A DNA stretch of 33,467 nt from Chitinophagales bacterium (GTDB lineage: Bacteria; Bacteroidota; Bacteroidia; Chitinophagales; UBA2359), in contig JAEUUX010000140.1 in the NCBI GenBank assembly GCA_016787295.1, forward strand, positions 1 through 33,467. Reading direction: 5' to 3'. Below are positions 27 to 33,467 of the stretch, piece after piece. The translations under genes were made by a program, and so were the position numbers. Under the pieces are notes generated by a model. It was not told where the DNA came from, did not search any database, and saw only the letters and a program-made list of their open reading frames with translations. Each line of letters begins with the position of its first letter. The stretch's first letter is position 1.

Positions 27-137
27 AAAAACAACCCTGAAAGGGTGACAAGTTTATAGCAAAAACAAAAAACAACCATTAACACAAACCCTGAAAGGGT
101 GACATAATCTAAACGAAATCCACACATTGTTGAGCGA
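27..137 (+). repeat. Duplicated block, left copy
   Basis: This block of about 111 bp recurs at 824-934 with three visible mismatches. It contains two ACCCTGAAAGGGTGACA boxes whose starts are 54 bp apart, separated by an A-rich spacer, and runs into the CACATTGTTGAGCG motif. In each box ACCCT and AGGGT can pair around GAA. The two blocks flank the 21-bp GCGCAA array. Confidence 0.85.
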
Positions 138-225
138 AGCCCACACACTGTCCAACAAAACCCACACACTGTCCAACAAAACCCACACACTGTCCAACAA
201 AACCCACACATTGTTGAGCGAAGCC
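121..225 (+). repeat. 21-bp minisatellite, five units in A-B-B-B-A order
   Basis: Five consecutive units of exactly 21 bp. The outer two (121-141, 205-225) are identical and contain ATTGTTGAGCGAAGCC; the inner three are identical and contain CTGTCCAACAAAACC. All begin CACACA. Related 21-bp units occur at 918-959 and 3520-3561. Confidence 0.9.
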
Positions 226-3674: not shown

Positions 3675-6314
3675 CTACTCCACCATTTTCTTAAGCTCGT
3701 TCAGCTTCATCAAAGCCTCGATAGGTGTGAGCGTATTGGGGTCAATAGCCTCCAAAGCCGCCTTCAAACGCTGCAATTCGGGGCTACTCATGTCAAAAAT
3801 GCTCATTTGATATTGCGGTTCTTGTCGCGCCATTTGTTTGAGGTTGCTCTTAATAGGATTTTCTTGCTCAATATGTTTCTGTTCGAGGGTAGCCAAAATC
3901 TCGTTGGCACGCCTCACGATGCTTACGGGCATACCCGCCATTTGTGCGACGTGTATACCGAAACTTCGTTCTGCTGCCCCTTCCACCAATTTGCGCAAAA
4001 AGATAACTTTGTTGCCCATTTCGCGCACGGCAATAGTAAAATTTTTGACCCGTTCAAACTTTTCTGCCAATTCGGTTAGCTCATGGTAGTGCGTTGCAAA
4101 CAAAGTCTTAGGTTGTCCTTTCGGAGATGTATGGAGGTATTCCGCCAATGCCCATGCGATAGAAATACCGTCATAAGTGCTGGTACCACGCCCAATTTCG
4201 TCTAACAAAATCAGGCTTCGGGAGGAAATATTGTGCATAATGCTGGCTGTTTCGGTCATTTCCACCATAAAAGTAGATTCGCCCGACGAAATATTGTCCG
4301 ATGCCCCGACGCGCGTAAATATCTTATCGACCCAACCTATGCTCGCCGCCTCCGCAGGCACATAACAACCGATTTGAGCCAACAGCACGATGAGCGCCGT
4401 TTGGCGAAGCAAGGCAGATTTTCCCGCCATGTTGGGACCAGTGATGAGCAAAATCTGCTGTTCGTCTGCATCTAAAAAAACATCGTTCGCCACATACTCT
4501 TCACCCAATTGCAGTTGCGTTTCAATGACCGGATGCCTGCCTTTTTTAATATCAATACTCAAAGAATCGTTGATATTCGGGCGACAATAGTTGTTTTTGC
4601 GTGCCAATAGTGCAAAAGCGTGCAAACAATCCAACTTCGCCACGATAGCCGCATTATATTGTATCGGTTTGATGTAATCGAGCAGTGCCAACACCAATGA
4701 TTCGAACAATTTGACTTCTATTTGTGCAATTTTCTCTTCTGCGCCGAGGATTTTATCCTCATATTTCTTTAACTCCTCCGTGATGTAGCGTTCTGCTTGT
4801 GCGAGAGTCTGTTTTCGTAGCCACGTTTTCGGTACTTGGTCTTTGTAGGTGTTTCGAACCTCCAAATAATAGCCAAAAACGTTGTTAAACCCAATTTTTA
4901 AGGACTTAATGCCCGTGTTTTGGATTTCGCGCTGTTCTATTTCGAGCAATCGTTCTTTGCCAGAGTGCTGCAACTCCCTCAATTCGTCCAATTCGGCAGC
5001 AACACCATGTCTAAACACGTCACCTTTTCCGAGCGCAACGGGTGCTTCTTCGATAAGTTCGCGCTCGATACGTTGCGAAATACCCGCGCAGGGGTTCAAT
5101 TGTTCTGCAATTCGTTGTAAATATGGATTTTGGCTTTGTTCGCAAACCACTTTTATCGGTTCGAGCGCCTTTAAACCATTTTTGAGTTGCACCAACTGTC
5201 GTGGGTTCACCTTTCCGAGGGGTATTTTTGCGATGAGCCTTTCGAGGTCGCCAATTTGTCGCAATTGAGTTGCCAATAAGTGTGCAAATTCTTCATTTTC
5301 GAGCATATAATCCACCAAAGAGAGGCGTTCTTCTATCGGTTGCACCTCTTTGAGTGGCAAGACGAGCCATTTTTTGAGCAAGCGTGCGCCCATCGGCGAA
5401 ACAGTCTTGTCCAATACTTTAATTAAGGGCGTTCCGCTGTCGTGGGTGCTTTGCAACAGCTCCAAATTTCGGATAGTAAAACGGTCTAACCACACATAAC
5501 GGTCGGGTTTGACGCGCGAAAGTGCCGTTAAATGCTGCAAATTTGGGTGTTCGGTCTCTTTGAGGTAGTGGATAATCGCTCCCGCCGCCACAACGCCCGA
5601 TGAGGCTTCCTCAATGCCAAATCCGCGAAGATTTTTCACCCCAAAATGGCGCAACAACACGTCCTCTCCAAATTGGCGCTCAAATATCCATTCATCTAAG
5701 GGATAAATGTAGAACGAATCGGCTATCATGCCTTTCAAATCGCGTTGGCGTGGCTTGGGATACAATATCTCCGATGGTTGAAAACTCTGAATGGTTTTCT
5801 CGATATATTCTGGTGAGCCTTCAGACAACCAAAACTCACCTGTGGACACATCTGCGAGGGCAATACCCATGTCTTGTTTTCCAAAATACACGGCTGCCAA
5901 ATAGTTATTACTGTGATGGTCGAGCATTTTATCGCTTAACGCCACACCGGGCGTTACCAATTCTGTAATACCGCGTTTGACGATTCCCTTGGCGAACTTT
6001 GGGTCTTCCAATTGGTCACAAATAGCCGCCCTATAGCCCGCTCTGACGAGCTTGGGCAGATAGGTGTCTAAGGCATGATACGGAAAACCTGCCAATTCGG
6101 TCTCCGAAGCCGTGCCATTATGCCTTTTGGTGAGGGTAATACCAAGCACACCGGCAGCCACAACGGCATCTTGTCCAAAAGTTTCGTAAAAATCCCCGAC
6201 TCTAAACAGAAGGATAGCGTCGGGATATTTAGTTTTGAAATGATTATATTGCTTCATCAAAGGCGTAACGTTCGCCTCCGATGTATTTTTATTGGAATTG
6301 TTGGGACGTGCCAT
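3675..6314 (-). CDS. mutS: DNA mismatch repair protein MutS
   Basis: MutS recognises mismatches and small loops and starts methyl-independent or MutL-dependent repair. From the ATG at 6314 the protein has 879 residues, normal for the family. The N-terminal mismatch-binding motif GDFYETF (Phe42, Glu44) is intact, followed by connector, lever and clamp regions. The ATPase has Walker A GPNMAGKS (from about 626), the SSGESTFMVEM signature, Walker B LILLDEIGRG (about 701) and ATHYHEL. The ORF extends 19 codons upstream to 6371, but MARPNN... is the more plausible start, and a TAnnTTTG box on this strand lies at 6349-6356. It is transcribed alone; repeat arrays lie within 20 bp of its stop. No defect is visible. 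Confidence 0.97.
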   Translation of the reverse strand: MARPNNSNKNTSEANVTPLMKQYNHFKTKYPDAILLFRVGDFYETFGQDAVVAAGVLGITLTKRHNGTASETELAGFPYHALDTYLPKLVRAGYRAAICDQLEDPKFAKGIVKRGITELVTPGVALSDKMLDHHSNNYLAAVYFGKQDMGIALADVSTGEFWLSEGSPEYIEKTIQSFQPSEILYPKPRQRDLKGMIADSFYIYPLDEWIFERQFGEDVLLRHFGVKNLRGFGIEEASSGVVAAGAIIHYLKETEHPNLQHLTALSRVKPDRYVWLDRFTIRNLELLQSTHDSGTPLIKVLDKTVSPMGARLLKKWLVLPLKEVQPIEERLSLVDYMLENEEFAHLLATQLRQIGDLERLIAKIPLGKVNPRQLVQLKNGLKALEPIKVVCEQSQNPYLQRIAEQLNPCAGISQRIERELIEEAPVALGKGDVFRHGVAAELDELRELQHSGKERLLEIEQREIQNTGIKSLKIGFNNVFGYYLEVRNTYKDQVPKTWLRKQTLAQAERYITEELKKYEDKILGAEEKIAQIEVKLFESLVLALLDYIKPIQYNAAIVAKLDCLHAFALLARKNNYCRPNINDSLSIDIKKGRHPVIETQLQLGEEYVANDVFLDADEQQILLITGPNMAGKSALLRQTALIVLLAQIGCYVPAEAASIGWVDKIFTRVGASDNISSGESTFMVEMTETASIMHNISSRSLILLDEIGRGTSTYDGISIAWALAEYLHTSPKGQPKTLFATHYHELTELAEKFERVKNFTIAVREMGNKVIFLRKLVEGAAERSFGIHVAQMAGMPVSIVRRANEILATLEQKHIEQENPIKSNLKQMARQEPQYQMSIFDMSSPELQRLKAALEAIDPNTLTPIEALMKLNELKKMVE

Positions 6315-6348
6315 ATAATAGAACAAAAAAGGGGTGTTAAAATTTGCG

Positions 6349-6356
6349 CAAAGATA
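6349..6356 (-). promoter_or_regulatory. Putative -7 promoter box for mutS
   Basis: TATCTTTG on the minus strand, 35 bp before the chosen ATG at 6314. It supports the start at 6314 rather than 6371. No well-spaced -33 TTG was found. Confidence 0.5.
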
Positions 6357-6459
6357 GTACAAAAATCGCAAAGCCCGATTCTTTATCGGCTATCAAAGTG
6401 TGATTTGGCGTTAATTTGGCAAAAAAAGGGATTAAATAGCTATTTTTCTAAAAAACCCT

Positions 6460-6467
6460 TACCTTTG
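6460..6467 (+). promoter_or_regulatory. Putative -7 promoter box for 6496 gene
   Basis: TACCTTTG lies 28 bp before the ATG at 6496, divergent from the mutS box. Confidence 0.5.
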
Positions 6468-6495
6468 TGCGTTTTTTTGTTGCTAATTTTTCAAT

Positions 6496-10434: not shown

Positions 10435-12366
10435 TTAGTGAGCCACAACAAAACGACCTTGTTGTTTCATAGTACCGTTGTCTACTTGTACGAAGTAGTA
10501 ACCGTTGGCTAATTGACTAACATCAACACCAATGTTGTTAGCACCTTCGTTAGTAGCAGCGTTTTGTTGGCTGATTTGACGACCCATAACATCGAAGATA
10601 CGAACAGTTACGTTGTCGTTAGCAGTTGCTACAAAACCGATAGTTACTTTGTCTTTGCTTGGATTAGGGAACAAGCTCAAAGTAGAGATTTCGTTAGGAG
10701 CTACTTCCATTTCCATAGTTTTGAAGTTAGTAGCACCTGTAGAGGCACGCAAAGTATAGCATTGAGAAGCGCTAAACGCACCACCATAACCATACACATA
10801 AACATAGTAGGTATAAGCAGATGTTGTACCGTTGTAGATAATTTGTTCAGCAGTAGTACCACTATTTTCAGAAATACCTACTTGTGTGTTGCTGCGATAC
10901 AATTTTACGTCATAGTCACCTGCCAAGTTAGACAAGTTGATTTTTACTTTAGGGTCAGCAGTTGTAGTGGTAAATTTGAACCAATCTACATCTGTAGAAG
11001 TACCGATAGAAGCAGTAATATCTGCATTTTTAGCCATGGTTTTAGCTGTAGATTTACTGTTGTTAGATTCATAGGTATCTGTACAAGTTCCACCGCCACC
11101 TGAAGCAGAGGTTGTGAAATTGCTACCAGCTACATAAGCGCTTGTACCACTAGAGCAAACTGCTTGTACTTGCCAGCTATAAGTAGTGCTTGCAGACAAA
11201 CCTGTCAAAGACAAAGAGTTGCTAGAAGCACTAACAGTTGTCCAAGTAGAGGCAGTAGAAACTTTGTATTGTACATTGTAAGAAGTGGCACCGCTTGCCG
11301 CAGTCCAGCTCAAAGTAGCACCAGAAGCTGTCAAACTACCAGCAGCCAAACTAGCGGGGCTACCACAAGTTGTTCCGCCACCGCTTGGGGCAGTACAACC
11401 ATCAGAAGTTGCCAAACTAACGCGAGAACCGCCACTTGCGAACAAGGCTTGCATACGAGTTTTTTGACCATTTGAGAACATGTACATACAACCATCATCT
11501 ACATAGTCCATATAGTTCATGAACATGTCACCATTAACGTTGCTACAAGTAACGTGTGGGTGGCTTGGGCAACCATAGTTAGAAGTTTGTTGGGTAGGAG
11601 TGTCACTTACTTGGTCGTTACCACAACTTGCATCACCCCAGATGTGGCGAAGGTTTAACCAGTGTCCTACTTCGTGTGTCAAGGTACGACCTTTACCATA
11701 TACGCCACCTGCGGGATTTGGTGTTGCCACAGAACCGAAAGAAGTATAAGTACAAATAACACCATCGGTATTAGCTGTGCCACCGGGGAATTGTGCATAA
11801 CCTAAAAGGTTTGCGCTACTTCCGCCAAATATACAACTCCAAACGTTTAAGTATTTATTTCTGTCCCAGATAGTTTGTGGTTTAAGGGTGCTTTCAATTT
11901 GGTTTTGTGCCCAACTTGCTTGTCCCATATTAACACGGTTAATACCTGTAGTAGCCGTTCCATCGGGTTTGCGTTGTGCCAAACAGAATTGAATTTCAGC
12001 GTCAGCTGCTAAACCTGCAAAAACAGAAGGTACTAAGCTAACATCACTGTTCAATTTGCGATAATCTTTGTTCAATTGATCTAACTGTGCCATGATGTAG
12101 GTATCAGAAATGTTTTCGCCGCTACCTACTGCGTCACCATTGTGAATGATGTGAAATACAACGGGAATTGTTACCACTACGCGTTCGCCATGCTGATGGT
12201 GAGCTGCATAATTTTGTGTGTGTTGTTCGATTTGTTCCATGCGATCTTGCATCGCAGGATCTTGAAGCAATTGATTATTGAGGTTGTCCATTGAACCACA
12301 ATTACGTTGTGCCATTGCAGCCAACGAACAGAAAAGAGAGAAAGCAACCAGTGTTAACTTTTTCAT
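10435..12366 (-). CDS. T9SS-secreted M43 (cytophagalysin-like) metalloprotease
   Basis: A 643-residue secreted zinc protease. Order: signal peptide (1-19, ending AMA-Q); propeptide-like region; M43 catalytic domain with HEVGHWLNLRH (His231, Glu232, His235, His241) and a Met-turn segment MNYMDY (about 283-288); several Cys pairs; a fibronectin type III domain (about 335-420); a bacterial pre-peptidase C-terminal-like domain (about 428-545, with DVDWFKF); and a T9SS type A sorting domain (about 563-643, FPNPSKDKVTI ... GYYFVQVDNG ... GRFVVAH). Likely exported by the T9SS and cell-surface bound or released. Gly/Ser linkers join the domains. Related secretion genes porX and gldB lie 4-7 kb away. 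The substrate is unknown. Confidence 0.95.
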   Translation of the reverse strand: MKKLTLVAFSLFCSLAAMAQRNCGSMDNLNNQLLQDPAMQDRMEQIEQHTQNYAAHHQHGERVVVTIPVVFHIIHNGDAVGSGENISDTYIMAQLDQLNKDYRKLNSDVSLVPSVFAGLAADAEIQFCLAQRKPDGTATTGINRVNMGQASWAQNQIESTLKPQTIWDRNKYLNVWSCIFGGSSANLLGYAQFPGGTANTDGVICTYTSFGSVATPNPAGGVYGKGRTLTHEVGHWLNLRHIWGDASCGNDQVSDTPTQQTSNYGCPSHPHVTCSNVNGDMFMNYMDYVDDGCMYMFSNGQKTRMQALFASGGSRVSLATSDGCTAPSGGGTTCGSPASLAAGSLTASGATLSWTAASGATSYNVQYKVSTASTWTTVSASSNSLSLTGLSASTTYSWQVQAVCSSGTSAYVAGSNFTTSASGGGGTCTDTYESNNSKSTAKTMAKNADITASIGTSTDVDWFKFTTTTADPKVKINLSNLAGDYDVKLYRSNTQVGISENSGTTAEQIIYNGTTSAYTYYVYVYGYGGAFSASQCYTLRASTGATNFKTMEMEVAPNEISTLSLFPNPSKDKVTIGFVATANDNVTVRIFDVMGRQISQQNAATNEGANNIGVDVSQLANGYYFVQVDNGTMKQQGRFVVAH

Positions 12367-16563: not shown

Positions 16564-18114
16564 TTATTTGCTACTAAAATGTGCTATAGGAACAATAATT
16601 TCCTCTAATGAAATACCTCCATGCTGGAAAGTATTGCGGAAATAATTGACATAGTAGTTATAATTGTTGGGATAAGCAAAAAAGGTGTCTTCCTTTGCAA
16701 AAATAAAAGTTGAACTCACGTTGGGCGTGGGCAGTTTGACATCAGAAGGACGACGGAACTCCAACACCTCTTTGTTGTTGTACTGCAAATTTCTGCCATG
16801 TTTGTAGCGCAAATTAGAAGTTGTTTCGCGGTCACCTACCACTTTTGAGGGGCGCTGTACGCGCACTGTACCGTGGTCGGTCGTGAAAATAAGGTTGATT
16901 TTTCGGTCTTCTAAACGGCGCAAAGCCTGCCACAAAGGTGAGTGCAAAAACCAAGAACGGGTAATAGACCGATAAGCGGCTTCGTCACTTGCCAGTTCCT
17001 TCAGCACTTCCATCTCGGTGCGAGCATGTGAAAGCATATCCACAAAATTATAGACAATAACATTTAACTGGTTGGTCAACAAATTGGTGATATTGTCCAC
17101 CAGACTGTTGCCATCGTTGTTGTTCGTAATTTTGATGTACTTATACTTCATATCGTTACCGGTTCGACGCAATTGGTCGGCAAGAAAATCGTCTTCATAC
17201 AGGTTTTTTCCACCTTCGTCAACATCGTTTTTCCATAAATGAGGAAAGCGTTTTTCAATATCCAACGGCATTAAACCCGCAAAAATCGCATTGCGGCTAT
17301 AGTGAGTAGATGTGGGCAAAATGCTGAAAAAAGTGTCTTCCTGCAAAAACCGAAAACATTCTGATATAATAGGTTGTATAATTTTCCACTGGTCGAAGCG
17401 CAAATTGTCTATCACAATAACAAAATTAGGTACGTTGGCTTCTAATTTTGGGAAAATTTTATTGCGAAACAAGGTATGCGACATGGTAGGCGCTTTTTGT
17501 TTGCCCTGAATCCAGTCGGCGTAATTTTTGACAATAAATTTGCAAAATTCGGTATTGGCATCGGCTTTTTGGTTCGCCAAAACTTCGCGCATTTCTATGG
17601 CTTGGTTGCTCTCCAATTCCAACTCCCAATACACCAATTTTTTGTACAACTCTATCCATTCGTGATAATCGGAGGTGGATTGTATATCAGCAAAAATTTT
17701 CATGAACTCTTGTTGATACTTCGAAGTCGTAGCAGCCGACACCAAGCGTTGTGAGTCGATAATTTTTTTGAGGGTCAACAACACCTGATTGGGATTAACA
17801 GGTTTTATCAAATAGTCGGTAATTTGAGCACCAATGGCAGATTCCATCACGTTTTCGGCTTCGTTTTTGGTAATCATCACCACAGGCAAATTGTTGTTAA
17901 TGGCTTTGATGCGTGGCAAAGTTTCTAAGCCCGTGATACCGGGCATCGATTCGTCTAAGAACACAACATCGAAAGACTGCTCGCGCGCTTGTTCAATGGC
18001 ATCGTGTCCGTTGCTCACCGCAGTCACGTCATAGCCTTTGGTTTGAAGAAACATAATTTGGGGCTTCAACAAATCAATTTCGTCATCTGCCCACAAAATT
18101 TTGATGTTTGACAT
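16564..18114 (-). CDS. porX: T9SS response regulator/phosphodiesterase PorX
   Basis: PorX is a two-component response regulator of the type IX secretion system. The 516 residues comprise an N-terminal receiver (Asp10/Asp11, phospho-acceptor Asp54 in VVFLDES, Lys104 in LIKPVNP), a helical linker, and a PglZ-type alkaline phosphatase-superfamily domain (about 215-516). Candidate metal or catalytic residues are VIDN (Asp236), PTSTHYSRNAIFAG (about 267-280), VDMLSH (Asp359, His363), TTDHG (Asp413, His414) and QHGG (His498); all look intact. In studied relatives PorX works with kinase PorY and sigma factor SigP to control T9SS genes. No PorY is adjacent. gldB is the next gene on the same strand. 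Confidence 0.95.
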   Translation of the reverse strand: MSNIKILWADDEIDLLKPQIMFLQTKGYDVTAVSNGHDAIEQAREQSFDVVFLDESMPGITGLETLPRIKAINNNLPVVMITKNEAENVMESAIGAQITDYLIKPVNPNQVLLTLKKIIDSQRLVSAATTSKYQQEFMKIFADIQSTSDYHEWIELYKKLVYWELELESNQAIEMREVLANQKADANTEFCKFIVKNYADWIQGKQKAPTMSHTLFRNKIFPKLEANVPNFVIVIDNLRFDQWKIIQPIISECFRFLQEDTFFSILPTSTHYSRNAIFAGLMPLDIEKRFPHLWKNDVDEGGKNLYEDDFLADQLRRTGNDMKYKYIKITNNNDGNSLVDNITNLLTNQLNVIVYNFVDMLSHARTEMEVLKELASDEAAYRSITRSWFLHSPLWQALRRLEDRKINLIFTTDHGTVRVQRPSKVVGDRETTSNLRYKHGRNLQYNNKEVLEFRRPSDVKLPTPNVSSTFIFAKEDTFFAYPNNYNYYVNYFRNTFQHGGISLEEIIVPIAHFSSK

Positions 18115-21406: not shown

Positions 21407-21916
21407 TTAATGGTGGTGATGTCCGCCAGGACCGTGAGCATGACCATGTGCGAGTTCTTCGAGGCTAGCAGGACGCACATCCACTACACTACCTTTGAAA
21501 TGAAGGTCGACACCCGCCATTGGATGATTGAAATCCATTGTTACACTATTGTCATCAACAGCCGCAATGACACCTTCGAAGTATTCGCCGTCGGCGTTTT
21601 GCATAGGTAACATATTACCCACTTGCAACATTTCCATATCAAGCGAGCCGTCTACCATAAAAGTATTCAAAGGCAAAGCAACTATTGCGTCTTCTTGGTA
21701 AGGACCATAAGCTTCGTCTCCTTCTAACAAAAATTCAAAAGAATCGCCTACTTTGAGACCCATCAATTGTTCTTCGAATTGAGGCAACAATTGTCCTGCT
21801 CCAAATAAAAATAGAAATGGCTCGTGGTGGTTCACCACTTCGATAACCTCTCCCGTTGCACTACCATCGCGCAAGGTGTAGGTAATGGATACAACGGTTT
21901 TTTCTGCGATATTCAT
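21407..21916 (-). CDS. SlyD-like FKBP-type peptidyl-prolyl isomerase
   Basis: A 169-residue FKBP-type prolyl isomerase and chaperone of the SlyD class. The FKBP core flanks an inserted IF domain: FLFGAGQLLPQFEEQLMGLKVGD (about 35-57), EAYGPYQ, VDDNSVTMDFNHPMAGVDLHFKGSV (about 119-143). The last 17 residues are His-rich (HAHGPGGHHHH), the nickel/zinc-binding tail typical of SlyD. No signal peptide, so cytoplasmic. It is monocistronic with its own terminator. Roles in metal handling and protein folding are inferred from the family. Confidence 0.93.
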   Translation of the reverse strand: MNIAEKTVVSITYTLRDGSATGEVIEVVNHHEPFLFLFGAGQLLPQFEEQLMGLKVGDSFEFLLEGDEAYGPYQEDAIVALPLNTFMVDGSLDMEMLQVGNMLPMQNADGEYFEGVIAAVDDNSVTMDFNHPMAGVDLHFKGSVVDVRPASLEELAHGHAHGPGGHHHH

Positions 21917-22081: not shown

Positions 22082-23608
22082 TTATTTGGGAGGTATAACT
22101 ACTTTATAACGTCCAATCTTTTGTTTGCTTATGTTATTCTGTTTTGAAAGTATAGAGGCTTGAGGGTTTGTTCTAATTTGTTTGAGTAAATCAAGGTTTC
22201 TTAGATACGTAACTTCTTTGTCATAAGTATCTCGGTCGTTGGTGTTCATAGCCGAATAAATATCAGCAGGCGACAATTCTTTATCGTTCATGCCTGCAAT
22301 AATAATTCGTTTTTGAATGGGACTTAATTCAAAATCACTAAACAGCCGCAAAAACTCCTCTTGTATGGGCGTAAACACCGATTTATTGAACAATGTTACT
22401 GTGAACCAAACCGTATTGGAATACAATTTAGGTTTTTGGAGTTCGTTTTGTTGCATCAATGTAAAGATACGCTTCATGCCCTCGCCCATTTCACGCATTA
22501 CTTTATTTATTTTTAAAGTAGCTGCTATTTTGGCGTTTCGTGAATCGTGGCGATTGTCCAATGCTTCTAAGTCTTGTACTGTGAGCGTAGAAAGCAGGGC
22601 ACCAGGACTTTTAATTTCCATTCGGTCATTATAAATATGCACCTCAATACCGCGTCCTTCTACTGCATAATCTCTGTGAGCTATAGCATTGACAAGGGCT
22701 TCTCTACACGCATCTTCGGGATAAATAAATTTTTGTTCAAATTGGGCGTTTGCAGTAAAAATTGTTTGCGATGCTAAGTATGGGCGCATCGTTTCCCATG
22801 ATTTGAATATCAACTCATAGATATTGCCTTGCACAGACTCATCACTAATTACATTGTATTGTTCGCCCGATAACAATGCTGTTCCTGCTATTTTAATATA
22901 GCGTATTTGACAACGCGGGTGCCATCTTTGAATGTCTTTGGCGAACAATAATACGGCTGCTTTGGTAAGGCGAAGTCCATTAGTAGCATATTGTGCCAAT
23001 CCTAAATGCTGCAAATATCTTTCAACAGTATAACCTTTCAGATAGTTATCTGCCAAGGATTGCAGTAAAGGAAAATCTAAGTCTGCTACTGTCGCGCCAT
23101 CAACAAACTGCCTGTCATAAACTCTTGAATTGATCTCTTGTTGGTCAAATTGCAGTTTTTTAACATTAGCGGGTACTGTCTGACGTTTTTCATTGCGACG
23201 CATTACCCTGCCATCACGAAGCTGATATATTTCGGAACTACCTTTGTCCACCTGAAAAAAACAAAATAATCTTTCCTTCAATAACGGTTTTTAATTTGTA
23301 AACAATTGGCAGTTGTTGTCCTTCAAAAATGTGTGTTTGGGGAGCATTGAGCATCATTTCAATATCTTCGTCCGAATGTGGCACACCTGTTATAGTGGTA
23401 TCATCTTCCACACCGATTATTATTTCGCCTCCGTCAGTATTAGCAAATGCCACCAAATCTTCTGTAATATCCTCGCATATTTTTTTGGCAAGACGTGGTT
23501 TTTTGTTATCAGGCTTTCCCTCCAACGCAGATTTAAATTCCCTAACATCGCTTTCGCCAACAAGAATAGAGTTTTTATCCTTTCCTGTAAAATCAATATT
23601 TCCGTCAT
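22082..23608 (-). pseudogene. AlbA_2/HATPase_c_4 (Schlafen/RecG-like) protein broken by two homopolymer frameshifts
   Basis: The pieces assemble into one ~508-residue protein. Frame one starts MTEILILQERIK (ATG 23608); a T5/A5 run at 23572-23576 then shifts the match to another frame: NSILVGESDVREFKSALEGK...FANTDGGEIIIGVEDD, an AlbA_2 domain. At a run of seven (23255-23261, T7 on the coding strand) the match returns to the first frame: QVDKGSSEIYQLRDGRVMRRNEKRQTVP. The rest has CREALVNAIAHRDYAVEGRGIEVHI and RNAKIAATLKINKVMREMGEGMKRI, the HATPase_c_4 module, and a winged-helix-like end. Ends share a frame; only the middle is displaced. One A gained and one T lost would restore it. Decay, phase variation or sequencing error are all possible. 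The family is found as DNA-binding ATPases in accessory loci. Confidence 0.82.
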
Positions 23609-23831: not shown

Positions 23832-24509
23832 GTGTCCAAGTTATTAGCTATTTTAGCGGCACAGCAAAACAATGTTGCGCCAATTGTGCCTTTTGAGCAA
23901 CAATATGACAAAATTGTTGAACTACATTTTGCAGCGAACGAATCTCTGTTTGCCGACCAAGACCTAAGCAACCCATACACAATGGAACATTGTATTTCAC
24001 AATATCTCCGCCAACAAAATGCTCGATATGGTGCAGGTGGTTATGGTGTGTTGCGTGCCATTTATGGACGGAGTTCCTTGTTTGATGGCGAAGCCGAAGC
24101 ACGCCGTTTCCACATTGGTTGCGATATTTTTGGCGAAGCGGGCACCCCTGTTTTTGCACCCATAGCAGGCAAAATCCATAGCTTTGCAGACAACCCAGCT
24201 TTGGGCGATTATGGTGCAACAATTATCCTCAAGCATACACTTTCGGGCGAAGTATTTTATACTTTGTATGGACACTTGGCTCGCACCGATTTGGACAGAC
24301 TTGTTGTGGATATGTCTGTAGAACAAGGGCAACTTTTCGCGCATTTCGGAACCATCGAAGAAAATGGCAATTGGTCGCCACACTTGCATTTCCAAATCAT
24401 CGCAGACATTGGCGATTATTGTGGTGATTATCCGGGGGTCTGTCGCTACTCGGAGCGCGAATGGTATTTGCAAAATTGTCCAAATCCTGTTTATTTGCTG
24501 CCTTGGTAA
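23832..24509 (+). CDS. M23-family (LytM) metallopeptidase, no signal peptide
   Basis: A 225-residue zinc peptidase of the LytM/lysostaphin family. The fold spans about 90-190: HIGCDIF (His94, Asp98 zinc ligands), GTPVFAPIAGKI, YGHL (His148) and SPHLHFQI (His184, His186). All catalytic residues are intact. The start is GTG at 23832; the next in-frame Met is about residue 51, inside the protein, and a promoter box sits just upstream. The first residues MSKLLAILAAQQN are not an obvious signal peptide, so cell-wall access is unclear. A C-terminal CPNPVYLLPW ending is Cys-containing. It ends next to a long bidirectional terminator. Peptidoglycan is the usual substrate. Confidence 0.9.
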   Translation: MSKLLAILAAQQNNVAPIVPFEQQYDKIVELHFAANESLFADQDLSNPYTMEHCISQYLRQQNARYGAGGYGVLRAIYGRSSLFDGEAEARRFHIGCDIFGEAGTPVFAPIAGKIHSFADNPALGDYGATIILKHTLSGEVFYTLYGHLARTDLDRLVVDMSVEQGQLFAHFGTIEENGNWSPHLHFQIIADIGDYCGDYPGVCRYSEREWYLQNCPNPVYLLPW

Positions 24510-24572: not shown

Positions 24573-26267
24573 TTAATCTGCCATCTTAATCGCTTGCAAC
24601 AATTGTTGATTGTCGCCATCGATGATTTTTACCAAATATATTCCCTTGGGATAGTTTTGCCAAGCATCTAACAAAAAACGGTAAGGTGTGCCTTCGGTGA
24701 CATACTGCTGTTGGGCTTGCAAAATCTTACCCGATGTATCGAGCAATTGTATAGACACATTCGTATTGGCGGTGGCATAATAATAGACATTCAACTCCGT
24801 ATTGAAAGGATTTGGGTATAAAAAACTACGGTTGGGGTTGCTTTCTATCTTATCGATATACACACCCAAATCTGCCATAGCTACATGAAAATCGGGCAAA
24901 CCATAGCCCATAGCATCGTCGGGATTATCATATTGCGAGGCGCTGCGCTCTACGGCTTGAATGATTTCCATATTGTTTTTGCTGCGGTCGGCTTGCCACA
25001 AACAAGTCACCAAGCCGGCTAACAAAGGCGATGAATAAGATGTACCATTGCCCGCAGTAGTGTTACCACTAGTATTGACGTAGGCAGTCATTTCGCCTTG
25101 TCCGACGATGTTGGGCTTCACGCGCCCATCGGCAGACGGACCATAGCCGCTAAAACCCGCATGAATACCCAACGAATCTGTTGCTCCAATAGTTAAGATA
25201 CTATCGGCATCAGAAGGAGCGCTAATGTGGTGCCAAGGTTGTTCTCCTGAATTGCCTGCACTAATTACCACCAAAATCCCTTTGGCAGCGGCAATATCCG
25301 CCCCGCGCGTACATACGGTTTTGTCACCATCGAGGTCTTCGTAGGTATGGTTCATTTGTTCAAAATCAAAAGTCGTATAGCCCAAAGATGAATTAATGAC
25401 ATCGACACCGAGGCTGTCTGCCAATTCGGCACCTGCCACCCAATTATACTCTTCTATCAAGGTTTCGCTGGCTGCATATTCCGTTCTGATAAGGTAATAT
25501 TGTGCTTTGGGAGCAGACCCCACAAAAGTTCCCGGTATCTCGGCTGCCATAATCGACAACACATTTGAGCCATGCGAACTACCTTCGTACACATAACTGT
25601 CTCCATCGGTAAAGTCGCGCCCGCCCAACAAACGTCCTTCGTTGCGCAAGGTCTCAAAAGCAGGATTATTGTCTACATTGTCAAAACCTGCATCTAAAAC
25701 AGCTACCAACATGCCTTCTCCTTGATACCCAAAAGCGTGAAGATGGTCGCCATTGAGCATATTGATTTGGTTAAAAGCTGTACCATAATATACATCACCT
25801 CCCCAAGCACGCTGTTTCTCTTCGTTTTGCAAGACTACACTTATACGTGTATTGTTTGGGGACATTAAATTCTTAATCTGGTTATTTTTGCGGCGCGACA
25901 AAGCAACAGCTTTTTTCTCGCTCACAAAAGGCAGCCCATCAATAGCCTGCAATTGGACAGAATCGCTGACCTGCACCACCACGCCATTCAACCATTTGGA
26001 ACTATACAAGACTATTGCTCCTGTATTCTGTATGCCTTGTACATAAACAGGTGAAACGGGAAGGTCTTGGTTAGTGAGCGCAATATTATATGCGGTGCGG
26101 CGAGCCAAAGCACGTTCCGACAAGAAAGATTGAGGATTAGATAAACTATAAGGTGAATTGTTTTTATCCTTAAACTGTACCCAATATTTGTTAAAAGCTA
26201 AGGCAGTTTGCGCCCAAGTGCTAATAGAAAAGCCGAGCGCTAAGATGACAGTTAATAAAGTACGCAT
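24573..26267 (-). CDS. T9SS-secreted subtilisin-like serine protease (S8)
   Basis: From the ATG at 26267 the protein has 564 residues. A signal peptide (1-19, ending TWA) precedes a propeptide region (about 20-150) and the S8 catalytic domain: AVLDAGFD (Asp192), SSHGSNV (His232), SAGNSG (Asn339, oxyanion hole) and GNGTSYSSP (Ser410). The C-terminus (about 495-564) is a T9SS type A sorting domain, FLYPNPFNTELNVYY ... PKGIYLVKIIDGD. Thus a cell-surface or released protease. Earlier in-frame ATGs at 26279 and 26333 exist; MRTLLTVILALG looks like the true signal start. It follows tyrS closely on the same strand (tyrS stop at 26337). Confidence 0.93.
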   Translation of the reverse strand: MRTLLTVILALGFSISTWAQTALAFNKYWVQFKDKNNSPYSLSNPQSFLSERALARRTAYNIALTNQDLPVSPVYVQGIQNTGAIVLYSSKWLNGVVVQVSDSVQLQAIDGLPFVSEKKAVALSRRKNNQIKNLMSPNNTRISVVLQNEEKQRAWGGDVYYGTAFNQINMLNGDHLHAFGYQGEGMLVAVLDAGFDNVDNNPAFETLRNEGRLLGGRDFTDGDSYVYEGSSHGSNVLSIMAAEIPGTFVGSAPKAQYYLIRTEYAASETLIEEYNWVAGAELADSLGVDVINSSLGYTTFDFEQMNHTYEDLDGDKTVCTRGADIAAAKGILVVISAGNSGEQPWHHISAPSDADSILTIGATDSLGIHAGFSGYGPSADGRVKPNIVGQGEMTAYVNTSGNTTAGNGTSYSSPLLAGLVTCLWQADRSKNNMEIIQAVERSASQYDNPDDAMGYGLPDFHVAMADLGVYIDKIESNPNRSFLYPNPFNTELNVYYYATANTNVSIQLLDTSGKILQAQQQYVTEGTPYRFLLDAWQNYPKGIYLVKIIDGDNQQLLQAIKMAD

Positions 26268-26336
26268 ATTGTTCGTCATTTTACAGAGATAGAAATAGGT
26301 TTTCGCGGTATTAAGACTTCCCCAATAGCTCAAAGA

Positions 26337-33185: not shown

Positions 33186-33437
33186 TCGTGTTTTTGTCGA
33201 AACCCATCGTGTTTTTGTCAAAACCCATCGTGTTTTTGCCGAAACCCATCGTGTTTTTGCCGAAACCCATCGTGTTTTTGCCGAAACCCATCGTGTTTTT
33301 GTCTAAACCCATCGTGTTTTTGTCAAAACCCATCGTGTTTTTGTCAAAACCCATCGTGTTTTTGTCAAAACCCATCGTGTTTTTGTCAAAACCCATCGTG
33401 TTTTTGTCAAAACCCATCGTGTTTTTGTCTAAACCCA
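33186..33437 (+). repeat. 12-copy 21-bp minisatellite
   Basis: Twelve consecutive units of exactly 21 bp, each starting TCGTGTTTTTG and ending AAACCCA; internal variants are TCAA, CCGA and TCTA before AACCCA, clustered in blocks (units 3-5 share CCGA, 7-11 share TCAA). On the minus strand they keep a 106-codon frame open with a 7-residue period (MGFDKNT); I treat this as repeat-driven, not a gene. The AAACCCA ending and TGTC(A)AA core also occur in the 121-225 and 3520-3561 units. Confidence 0.92.
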
Positions 33438-33467
33438 TCGTGGTTTGGTGGAGACGCGTGGTGGGTG

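What the first reader, a model, noticed from the sequence alone, without database searches (positions are those of the whole stretch)
22082..23608. Double homopolymer frameshift in an AlbA_2/HATPase gene, with both ends in one frame
The AlbA_2 coding segment is displaced by one base between an A5 run and a T7 run, yet both outer parts are in the same frame. Restoring A6 and T6 gives a full protein. Two opposite slips at homopolymers fit phase variation, decay or sequencing error. mutS nearby looks intact, so raised slippage is not explained by mismatch-repair loss.
Basis: partly seen in the sequence, partly recalled or inferred. Interest (0 to 1): 0.55.

Follow-up and report, generated by a model that had tools for sequence, protein, structure and literature searches.

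The report
Broken bacterial Schlafen-type defence gene
A horizontally acquired, probably anti-phage Schlafen-type gene in this environmental Bacteroidota genome is cut into three reading-frame pieces by two single-base length changes, while close relatives keep it whole; it is most likely a freshly broken gene (or, less likely, a local sequence error), not a genetic switch.

Summary
On the minus strand (23608->22082) one gene is split into three frames. Compared with all eight close relatives found, the window is one base short at 23572-23576 and one base long at 23255-23261; all eight read through both places in one frame. The gene encodes SLFN_AlbA_2 + HATPase_c_4 plus a C-terminal part, an architecture published as Schlafen RNase + minimal histidine kinase + wHTH. 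It is patchy (8 of 396 genomes of the order, own included), 90% identical to a copy in another genus where a neighbouring gene is 53% identical, and there it adjoins Gabija genes: a mobile, probably anti-phage gene. The displaced AlbA part has no ordinary start codon before its two conserved glutamates. Purifying selection acted almost to the present (omega 0.049; 1 rejected), so the break is very recent or an error. In 134 kb of this genome with homologues no other gene switches frame, so a generally error-prone assembly is unlikely; local error is not excluded. Phase variation and recoding are unsupported: the tracts are short, common and not conserved as tracts. Ordinary recent pseudogenisation is the best reading.

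The parts
22082..23608 (-). whole disrupted gene (SLFN_AlbA_2 + HATPase_c_4 + C-terminal part); 508 codons in the closest full-length relative
23579..23608 (-). N-terminal piece from the ATG (23606-23608), MTEILILQER; from this ATG translation ends after 62 residues
23572..23576 (-). first frame change: A5 on the coding strand; the stretch is one base shorter than in 8 of 8 relatives
23262..23570 (-). displaced SLFN_AlbA_2 piece, 103 codons in another frame; holds the conserved E (23553-23555), E (23538-23540) and D (23403-23405)
23523..23525 (-). first ATG/GTG/TTG in the AlbA frame (TTG); lies downstream of both conserved glutamates
23255..23261 (-). second frame change: T7 on the coding strand; the stretch is one base longer than in 8 of 8 relatives
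   Evidence: also called by the second frameshift HMM
22082..23254 (-). HATPase_c_4 and C-terminal piece; possible internal starts TTG 23281 and ATG 23203

Best explanation
This is a recently inactivated copy (a young pseudogene) of a horizontally spread, stand-alone bacterial Schlafen-type gene: an AlbA_2 (Schlafen RNase-core) domain fused to a minimal histidine-kinase-type ATPase and a C-terminal part. Shown: the reading frame is broken at two places where 8 of 8 relatives are continuous; the gene is patchy, far more similar between two genera than one of its neighbours, and lies in a defence cluster in one relative; selection kept the protein almost to the present. Inferred: the intact protein is an anti-phage, signal-activated RNase; after acquisition the gene lost its value or became costly; two one-base changes at short A/T runs ended full-length translation; as assembled the cell can make at most a 62-71 aa stub and an ATPase-half protein of about 370-400 aa, so no RNase activity is expected.
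For: Frames and junctions. One-frame homologues in the 13 loci, read stop to stop. No frame switch in any other gene within 134,069 bases of this genome that have homologues among 677 ORFs from G011 and the relatives' loci. Defence context: L031, which is the same record stretch as G011:C127, carries GajA and GajB directly downstream, a PD-Lambda-1 match upstream and an MjaI-type endonuclease match further down. Horizontal spread: 90% identity to G011 while the neighbouring FKBP-type isomerase is 53% identical there; 57-59% to records labelled Chloroflexi (two), Thioploca, Desulforapulum and Paenibacillus; 2 of 20 family genomes and 8 of 396 order genomes, own included. Selection: omega of the window branch 0.049 (grid interval 0.040-0.070) against 0.029 elsewhere, omega = 1 rejected (2dL 110.9); AlbA piece 0.097 against 0.034 (2dL 6.05), rest not different (2dL 0.80). 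The same genome seems to hold another gene with two short opposite shifts plus an in-frame stop (L062), so decay by small indels is plausible here.
Against: No stop or large deletion has accumulated in the gene and omega is close to background, which a sequencing error explains equally well. PMC3711429 (passages read) expects homology-validated frameshifts found in one genome only to be sequencing errors rather than true indels. No reads could be examined. The window is not an outlier in amino-acid changes at otherwise invariant columns (17 of 346; L032 21 of 355, L036 16 of 296). The excess in the AlbA piece rests on 113 codons, tree supports of 56-88 and long synonymous branches. The sensitivity of the homology check was not measured.
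Confidence: 0.57

Rival explanations
1. Consensus or assembly error: the organism has an intact gene and the draft contig carries two wrong run lengths, for instance through low local coverage.
For: Draft of 296 contigs; strong constraint almost to the present; no further disabling change; the literature expectation for single-genome frameshifts (PMC3711429, passages). The second gene with small opposite shifts (L062) could also be a sign of error.
Against: No frame switch in other genes within about 132.5 kb of homology-covered sequence outside the gene. 478 A/T runs of 7 or more lie in ORFs of 220+ codons that stay open. Both changes fall within about 320 bases of one gene. The check covers 15% of the 873 kb sampled and 2.5% of the genome, so a local problem is not excluded.
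Confidence: 0.26
2. Phase variation: reversible run-length change switches the gene on and off in the population.
For: Both junctions are A/T runs; poly(A)/poly(T) runs of 3-7 are over-represented in coding genes and proposed as general silencing sites (PMC2831843, passages); defence genes are plausible targets of switching (inference).
Against: Runs are short and commonplace and not conserved as runs in relatives. Two loci would have to switch together. At the gene's other 7-base run (23480-23486) there is no length difference from relatives. mutS and mutL are present.
Confidence: 0.07
3. Recoding: ribosomal frameshifting or polymerase slippage at the two runs yields some full-length protein from the split DNA.
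For: A-rich and U-rich runs can slip; PMC2831843 (passage) reports that transcriptional slippage yields some in-frame mRNAs from frameshifted genes in Buchnera.
Against: 8 of 8 relatives need no shift, so no conserved shift site exists. Two shifts of opposite sign would be needed in one message. Runs of 5 and 7 are shorter than those usually reported to slip efficiently (recalled).
Confidence: 0.04
4. Functional split: the pieces are made as separate proteins, in particular a free HATPase plus C-terminal protein.
For: The 3' piece has internal starts (TTG 23281, ATG 23203) and its omega does not differ from background, whereas the AlbA piece is somewhat relaxed.
Against: None of the 13 loci is split this way. 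The AlbA frame has no ATG, GTG or TTG before both conserved glutamates. The constraint may simply predate the break.
Confidence: 0.06

Closest known systems
[quoted passage not shown] passages read)
   Same: SLFN_AlbA_2 followed by HATPase_c_4 and, in full-length relatives, a mostly helical C-terminal part; one relative lies in a defence cluster
   Different: The window copy is split into three frames; its two adjoining genes are an FKBP-type isomerase and an M23 peptidase. One relative adjoins Gabija; no BREX core gene was identified, but of the relatives' flanks only seven proteins were searched
Mammalian SLFN13/SLFN12 endoribonuclease core
   Same: Weak sequence match to SLFN12 (E 0.003, residues 38-83). 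The E-x4-E spacing and a later D, invariant in 13 relatives, resemble E205/E210/D248 of rat SLFN13 (PMC5862951, passages); this correspondence is inferred, not aligned
   Different: One AlbA_2 domain with an ATPase half; no cleavage shown
Singleton frameshift genes and pseudogenes as classified by GeneTack (PMC3711429, passages)
   Same: Frame changes validated by homologues, shift sites not conserved in relatives
   Different: Two shifts in one gene, in a probable defence gene

Membership tests
Bacterial Schlafen (SLFN_AlbA_2 + HATPase + wHTH) | SLFN_AlbA_2 domain | tested here: met
   PF04326: relative P0002 59.4 bits; window piece 52.2 bits over profile positions 1-68 of 118
Bacterial Schlafen (SLFN_AlbA_2 + HATPase + wHTH) | minimal histidine-kinase-type ATPase domain | tested here: met
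   PF13749 HATPase_c_4, 79.6 bits in the window piece
Bacterial Schlafen (SLFN_AlbA_2 + HATPase + wHTH) | C-terminal wHTH | tested here: inconclusive
   No Pfam match in the last ~100 residues of P0002; AlphaFold gives helices plus short strands at pLDDT 76-92 from residue 411 on, but the model as a whole is poor (mean 59.3) and was not searched
Bacterial Schlafen (SLFN_AlbA_2 + HATPase + wHTH) | acidic catalytic triad | tested here: inconclusive
   E19, E24 and D69 invariant in 13 relatives and their codons present in the window; equivalence to the SLFN13 triad is inferred from spacing
Bacterial Schlafen (SLFN_AlbA_2 + HATPase + wHTH) | one uninterrupted reading frame | tested here: not met
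   three frames in the window
Pseudogene | reading frame disabled relative to intact homologues, sites not conserved | tested here: met
   8 of 8 relatives continuous at both places
Pseudogene | relaxed selection or further disabling changes | tested here: inconclusive
   omega 0.049 vs 0.029, AlbA piece 0.097 vs 0.034, rest not different; no stop within the AlbA or HATPase piece in its own frame
Phase-variable gene | hypermutable tract kept by selection | tested here: not met
   tracts bounded or interrupted differently in 3 of 8 and 2 of 8 relatives; comparable runs common in other ORFs
Phase-variable gene | different run lengths among cells or strains of the species | not testable with these tools
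   no same-genus genome in the lists; no reads held
Programmed frameshifting | conserved shift site in homologues | tested here: not met
   relatives are in one frame
Error-prone assembly | frame breaks elsewhere in conserved genes | tested here: not met
   none in about 132.5 kb with homologues outside the gene (sensitivity not measured); local error not excluded; one further gene with small shifts was seen by the HMM (L062)

The most novel reading that the evidence does not exclude
The two runs form a real on/off arrangement: in this lineage a costly Schlafen-type defence RNase is held in a reversible off state by paired run-length changes, or leaks a little full-length protein by slippage, so that a small part of the population stays armed.
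Probability: 0.06. Interest if true: 0.55.

Novelty: new member of a known kind. Interest (0 to 1): 0.2.

Why it matters
If real, it is one more example of a recently acquired defence gene being lost again by small indels, in a family (bacterial Schlafens) that is only now being tied to anti-phage defence. Practically, it warns that the split could make an annotation list an 'ATP-binding protein' and miss the Schlafen half. It does not reveal a new mechanism.

Tried and rejected
Structure: AlphaFold on 13 relatives gave mean pLDDT 59.3, pTM 0.31; judged too poor, so no fold search was run. Viral contigs: 2 stretches matched a pattern, none encodes a relative of P0001. Plasmids: 100 records under 60% identity, none covering 80% of the query; DNA search no match. 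Phages: 34 records, all under 60% identity, 5 of them covering at least 80% of P0002. NCBIfam: no model for P0002.

Frameshift surveys. A first HMM missed the known case. A sliding-junction scan found 21 of 300 simulated shifts and was dropped. The second HMM found 138 of 150 simulated shifts, with false calls in 2 of 150 unaltered ORFs, and made 13 calls in 327 kb: by eye 7 gene boundaries, 2 in non-coding sequence, 1 unclear (L062 18175), 2 in a formylglycine-type gene (L062) and 1 at the window T run. It did not call the first place, about 30 bases from the start codon. On 873 kb it made 91 calls, and 25 in 254 kb of the control genome G011 (sensitivity with a score cut 114 of 150 and 123 of 150); that output was cut and I did not classify these calls, so I lean on the homology check. 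One search also printed the first frame change of this same gene and one antisense shadow of it (an opposite-strand ORF of L037); neither is counted as another gene.

The PADLOC pAgo-model match of the relatives (E about 1e-28, residues 42-411) was set aside: I take it to be the AlbA/ATPase-like part of that long profile (inference), and the two genes adjoining the window gene are not Argonautes; no search for an Argonaute was made. A BREX reading of the PglZ-domain gene at 16564-18114 (PADLOC PglZ E 1e-26) was rejected: it has a receiver domain, the PorX architecture (recalled). The PADLOC 'subtilase' match of 24573-26333 (E 2.7e-19, weaker IetS matches) was set aside: a subtilase with a Por secretion tail.

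Full report
WHAT IS THERE. The window is the whole contig C120 of a 296-contig, 5.42 Mb draft. On the minus strand, between an FKBP-type isomerase gene (21407-21916) and an M23 peptidase gene (23832-24509), lies a gene in three reading-frame pieces: a start piece from ATG 23608; an AlbA_2 piece (PF04326, 52.2 bits, profile positions 1-68 of 118) in another frame; and a HATPase_c_4 piece (PF13749, 79.6 bits) back in the first frame, ending at 22082.

OBSERVATION CHECK. A scan of one-genome-per-species contigs gave 13 loci encoding relatives: eight at 81-90% identity (L030-L037, mostly Cytophagales MAGs; L032 is labelled Thiomargarita) and five at 57-59% (Chloroflexi twice, Thioploca, Desulforapulum, Paenibacillus). 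The aligned DNA of the eight shows one base missing from the window at 23572-23576 and one extra at 23255-23261, in 8 of 8, with no other length difference between the start and the second junction. L031, the same stretch as G011:C127, is a single 508-codon ORF beginning MTDILILQERIKNSILVGESDFREFK, which matches the window's start piece and AlbA piece. Two details change: the stretch read from the ATG hits stops before the second place, so the second change does not compensate the first; and the first change may be the loss of an isoleucine third base rather than a slip in a longer A run, since L030, L032 and L036 also have A5 there, after C or T.

WHAT THE INTACT GENE IS. The relatives tested carry SLFN_AlbA_2 and HATPase_c_4 (P0002, L036 second copy, L037, L038, L039, L041, L042). 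The same order, Schlafen-family RNase, minimal histidine kinase, wHTH, is described in PMC12839542 (passages read) as widespread beside BREX and related systems; [quoted passage not shown] In the 13 relatives E19, E24 and D69 are invariant; the E-x4-E spacing matches E205/E210 of rat SLFN13, whose alanine mutants were inactive (PMC5862951, passages), but I did not align the two families at these residues and the equivalence is inferred. A weak sequence match to SLFN12 covers residues 38-83 (E 0.003). In L031 the gene is followed directly by GajA and GajB (PADLOC E 1e-182 and 6e-193) and preceded, with one unmatched gene between, by a PD-Lambda-1 match, i.e. a defence cluster. The neighbours listed for the 13 loci look different from locus to locus (by eye from ORF starts; only seven neighbour proteins, from L030 and L031, were searched against families). 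The C-terminal two thirds of the protein (P0001) is 90% identical between the window and G011, while the neighbouring isomerase is 53% identical there and the M23 gene has no match at E 1e-20 in G011. The gene occurs in 2 of 20 genomes of the family (E 1e-60), 8 of 396 of the order and 3 of 395 of a class sample (E 1e-70), own included. This is the pattern of a horizontally moving gene.

SELECTION. On 403 codon columns shared by nine sequences (five codons at the junctions masked; the C-terminal ~100 codons left out because L035-L037 lack them) a two-ratio codon model gave omega 0.049 for the window branch and 0.029 elsewhere (2dL 4.08; grid interval 0.040-0.070, omega = 1 rejected with 2dL 110.9). 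The AlbA piece alone gives 0.097 against 0.034 (2dL 6.05), the rest 0.037 against 0.028 (2dL 0.80). If relaxation means neutrality, at most about 4% of the branch (17% for the AlbA piece) was unconstrained. Synonymous branches are long and tree supports are 56-88, so this is only a bound. Window changes at columns invariant in the other eight number 17 of 346; L032 has 21 of 355 and L036 16 of 296 on the same measure, so the window is not an outlier. The gene worked until very recently, or still does and the sequence is wrong.

ERROR OR REAL? I compared 677 ORFs of 150+ codons from G011 stretches and the relatives' loci (944 kb) with 873 kb of this genome. 134,069 bases of it are covered by homology and no other gene shows a frame switch; the sensitivity of this check was not measured, and a shift close to a gene end would be missed. 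478 A/T runs of 7 or more lie in ORFs of 220+ codons. A generally homopolymer-error-prone assembly is thus unlikely. The covered part is only 2.5% of the genome, and a local problem (low coverage, strain mixture) remains possible. A coding-potential HMM (138 of 150 simulated shifts found) turned up one further likely broken gene in the first 327 kb, a formylglycine-enzyme-like gene on C238 (L062, minus strand near 11439 and 11157), with two opposite shifts and an in-frame stop. I judged its identity from the translated motifs and did not confirm it with homologues. It suggests that small-indel decay happens in this genome, or that small indels in the assembly are not unique to our gene: it cuts both ways. 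The HMM's 91 calls on 873 kb and 25 on the control were not classified.

PHASE VARIATION AND RECODING. Both are poorly supported: tracts of 5 and 7 are commonplace here, bounded or interrupted differently in 3 of 8 and 2 of 8 relatives, and homologues need no shift. PMC2831843 (passages) argues that runs of 3-7 A/T can serve as general silencing sites, so silencing by run-length change remains a possible route to the break even if it is not a maintained switch. PMC3711429 (passages) expects homology-validated single-genome frameshifts to be sequencing errors rather than true indels. I weigh error at 0.26, below true recent inactivation (0.57), because of the clean homology check and the clustering of both changes in one patchy, mobile gene. 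PMC9252829 (passages) notes that many putative defence genes are annotated as pseudogenes and may be remnants or errors, so the finding fits a known pattern.

VERDICT. A real sequence feature, correctly described, of ordinary kind: a freshly broken, horizontally acquired Schlafen-type defence gene, pending read support.

Noticed in passing
L038, L039, L042 (matches at about 4650-6480): Relatives from two Chloroflexi MAGs and Paenibacillus carry an RNA recognition motif (RRM_1) behind the AlbA_2 and HATPase_c_4 domains: a Schlafen-type protein with an added RNA-binding domain.
   Followed up: partly
L035, L036, L037, L147, L151: Short forms, in open frames of about 410-440 codons, that end about where the C-terminal part would begin; L036 has a second short copy in tandem, 60% identical to P0002. 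In G020:C270 (L007/L147) the match to P0001 runs on past two stop codons, so some short forms may be truncated long ones.
   Followed up: partly
L031 1934-10974: The intact gene of UBA2322 sits in a defence cluster: PD-Lambda-1 match, an unmatched 251-aa gene, the Schlafen gene, GajA, GajB and an MjaI-type endonuclease match.
   Followed up: yes
L062 (G000:C238) minus strand, about 11700-10900: A formylglycine-enzyme-like gene (judged by eye) with two opposite one-base frame changes about 280 bases apart and an in-frame stop, a pattern like the finding's.
   Followed up: partly
window 112-214 and 33186-33446: Both contig ends lie in or near arrays of 21-base tandem repeats (4.9 and 12.4 copies), which may be why the assembly stops there.
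   Followed up: no
window 16564-18114: Response-regulator receiver plus PglZ domain in one protein (PorX-like, recalled), in a window with two genes bearing Por secretion tails (10435-12366, 24573-26333).
   Followed up: partly
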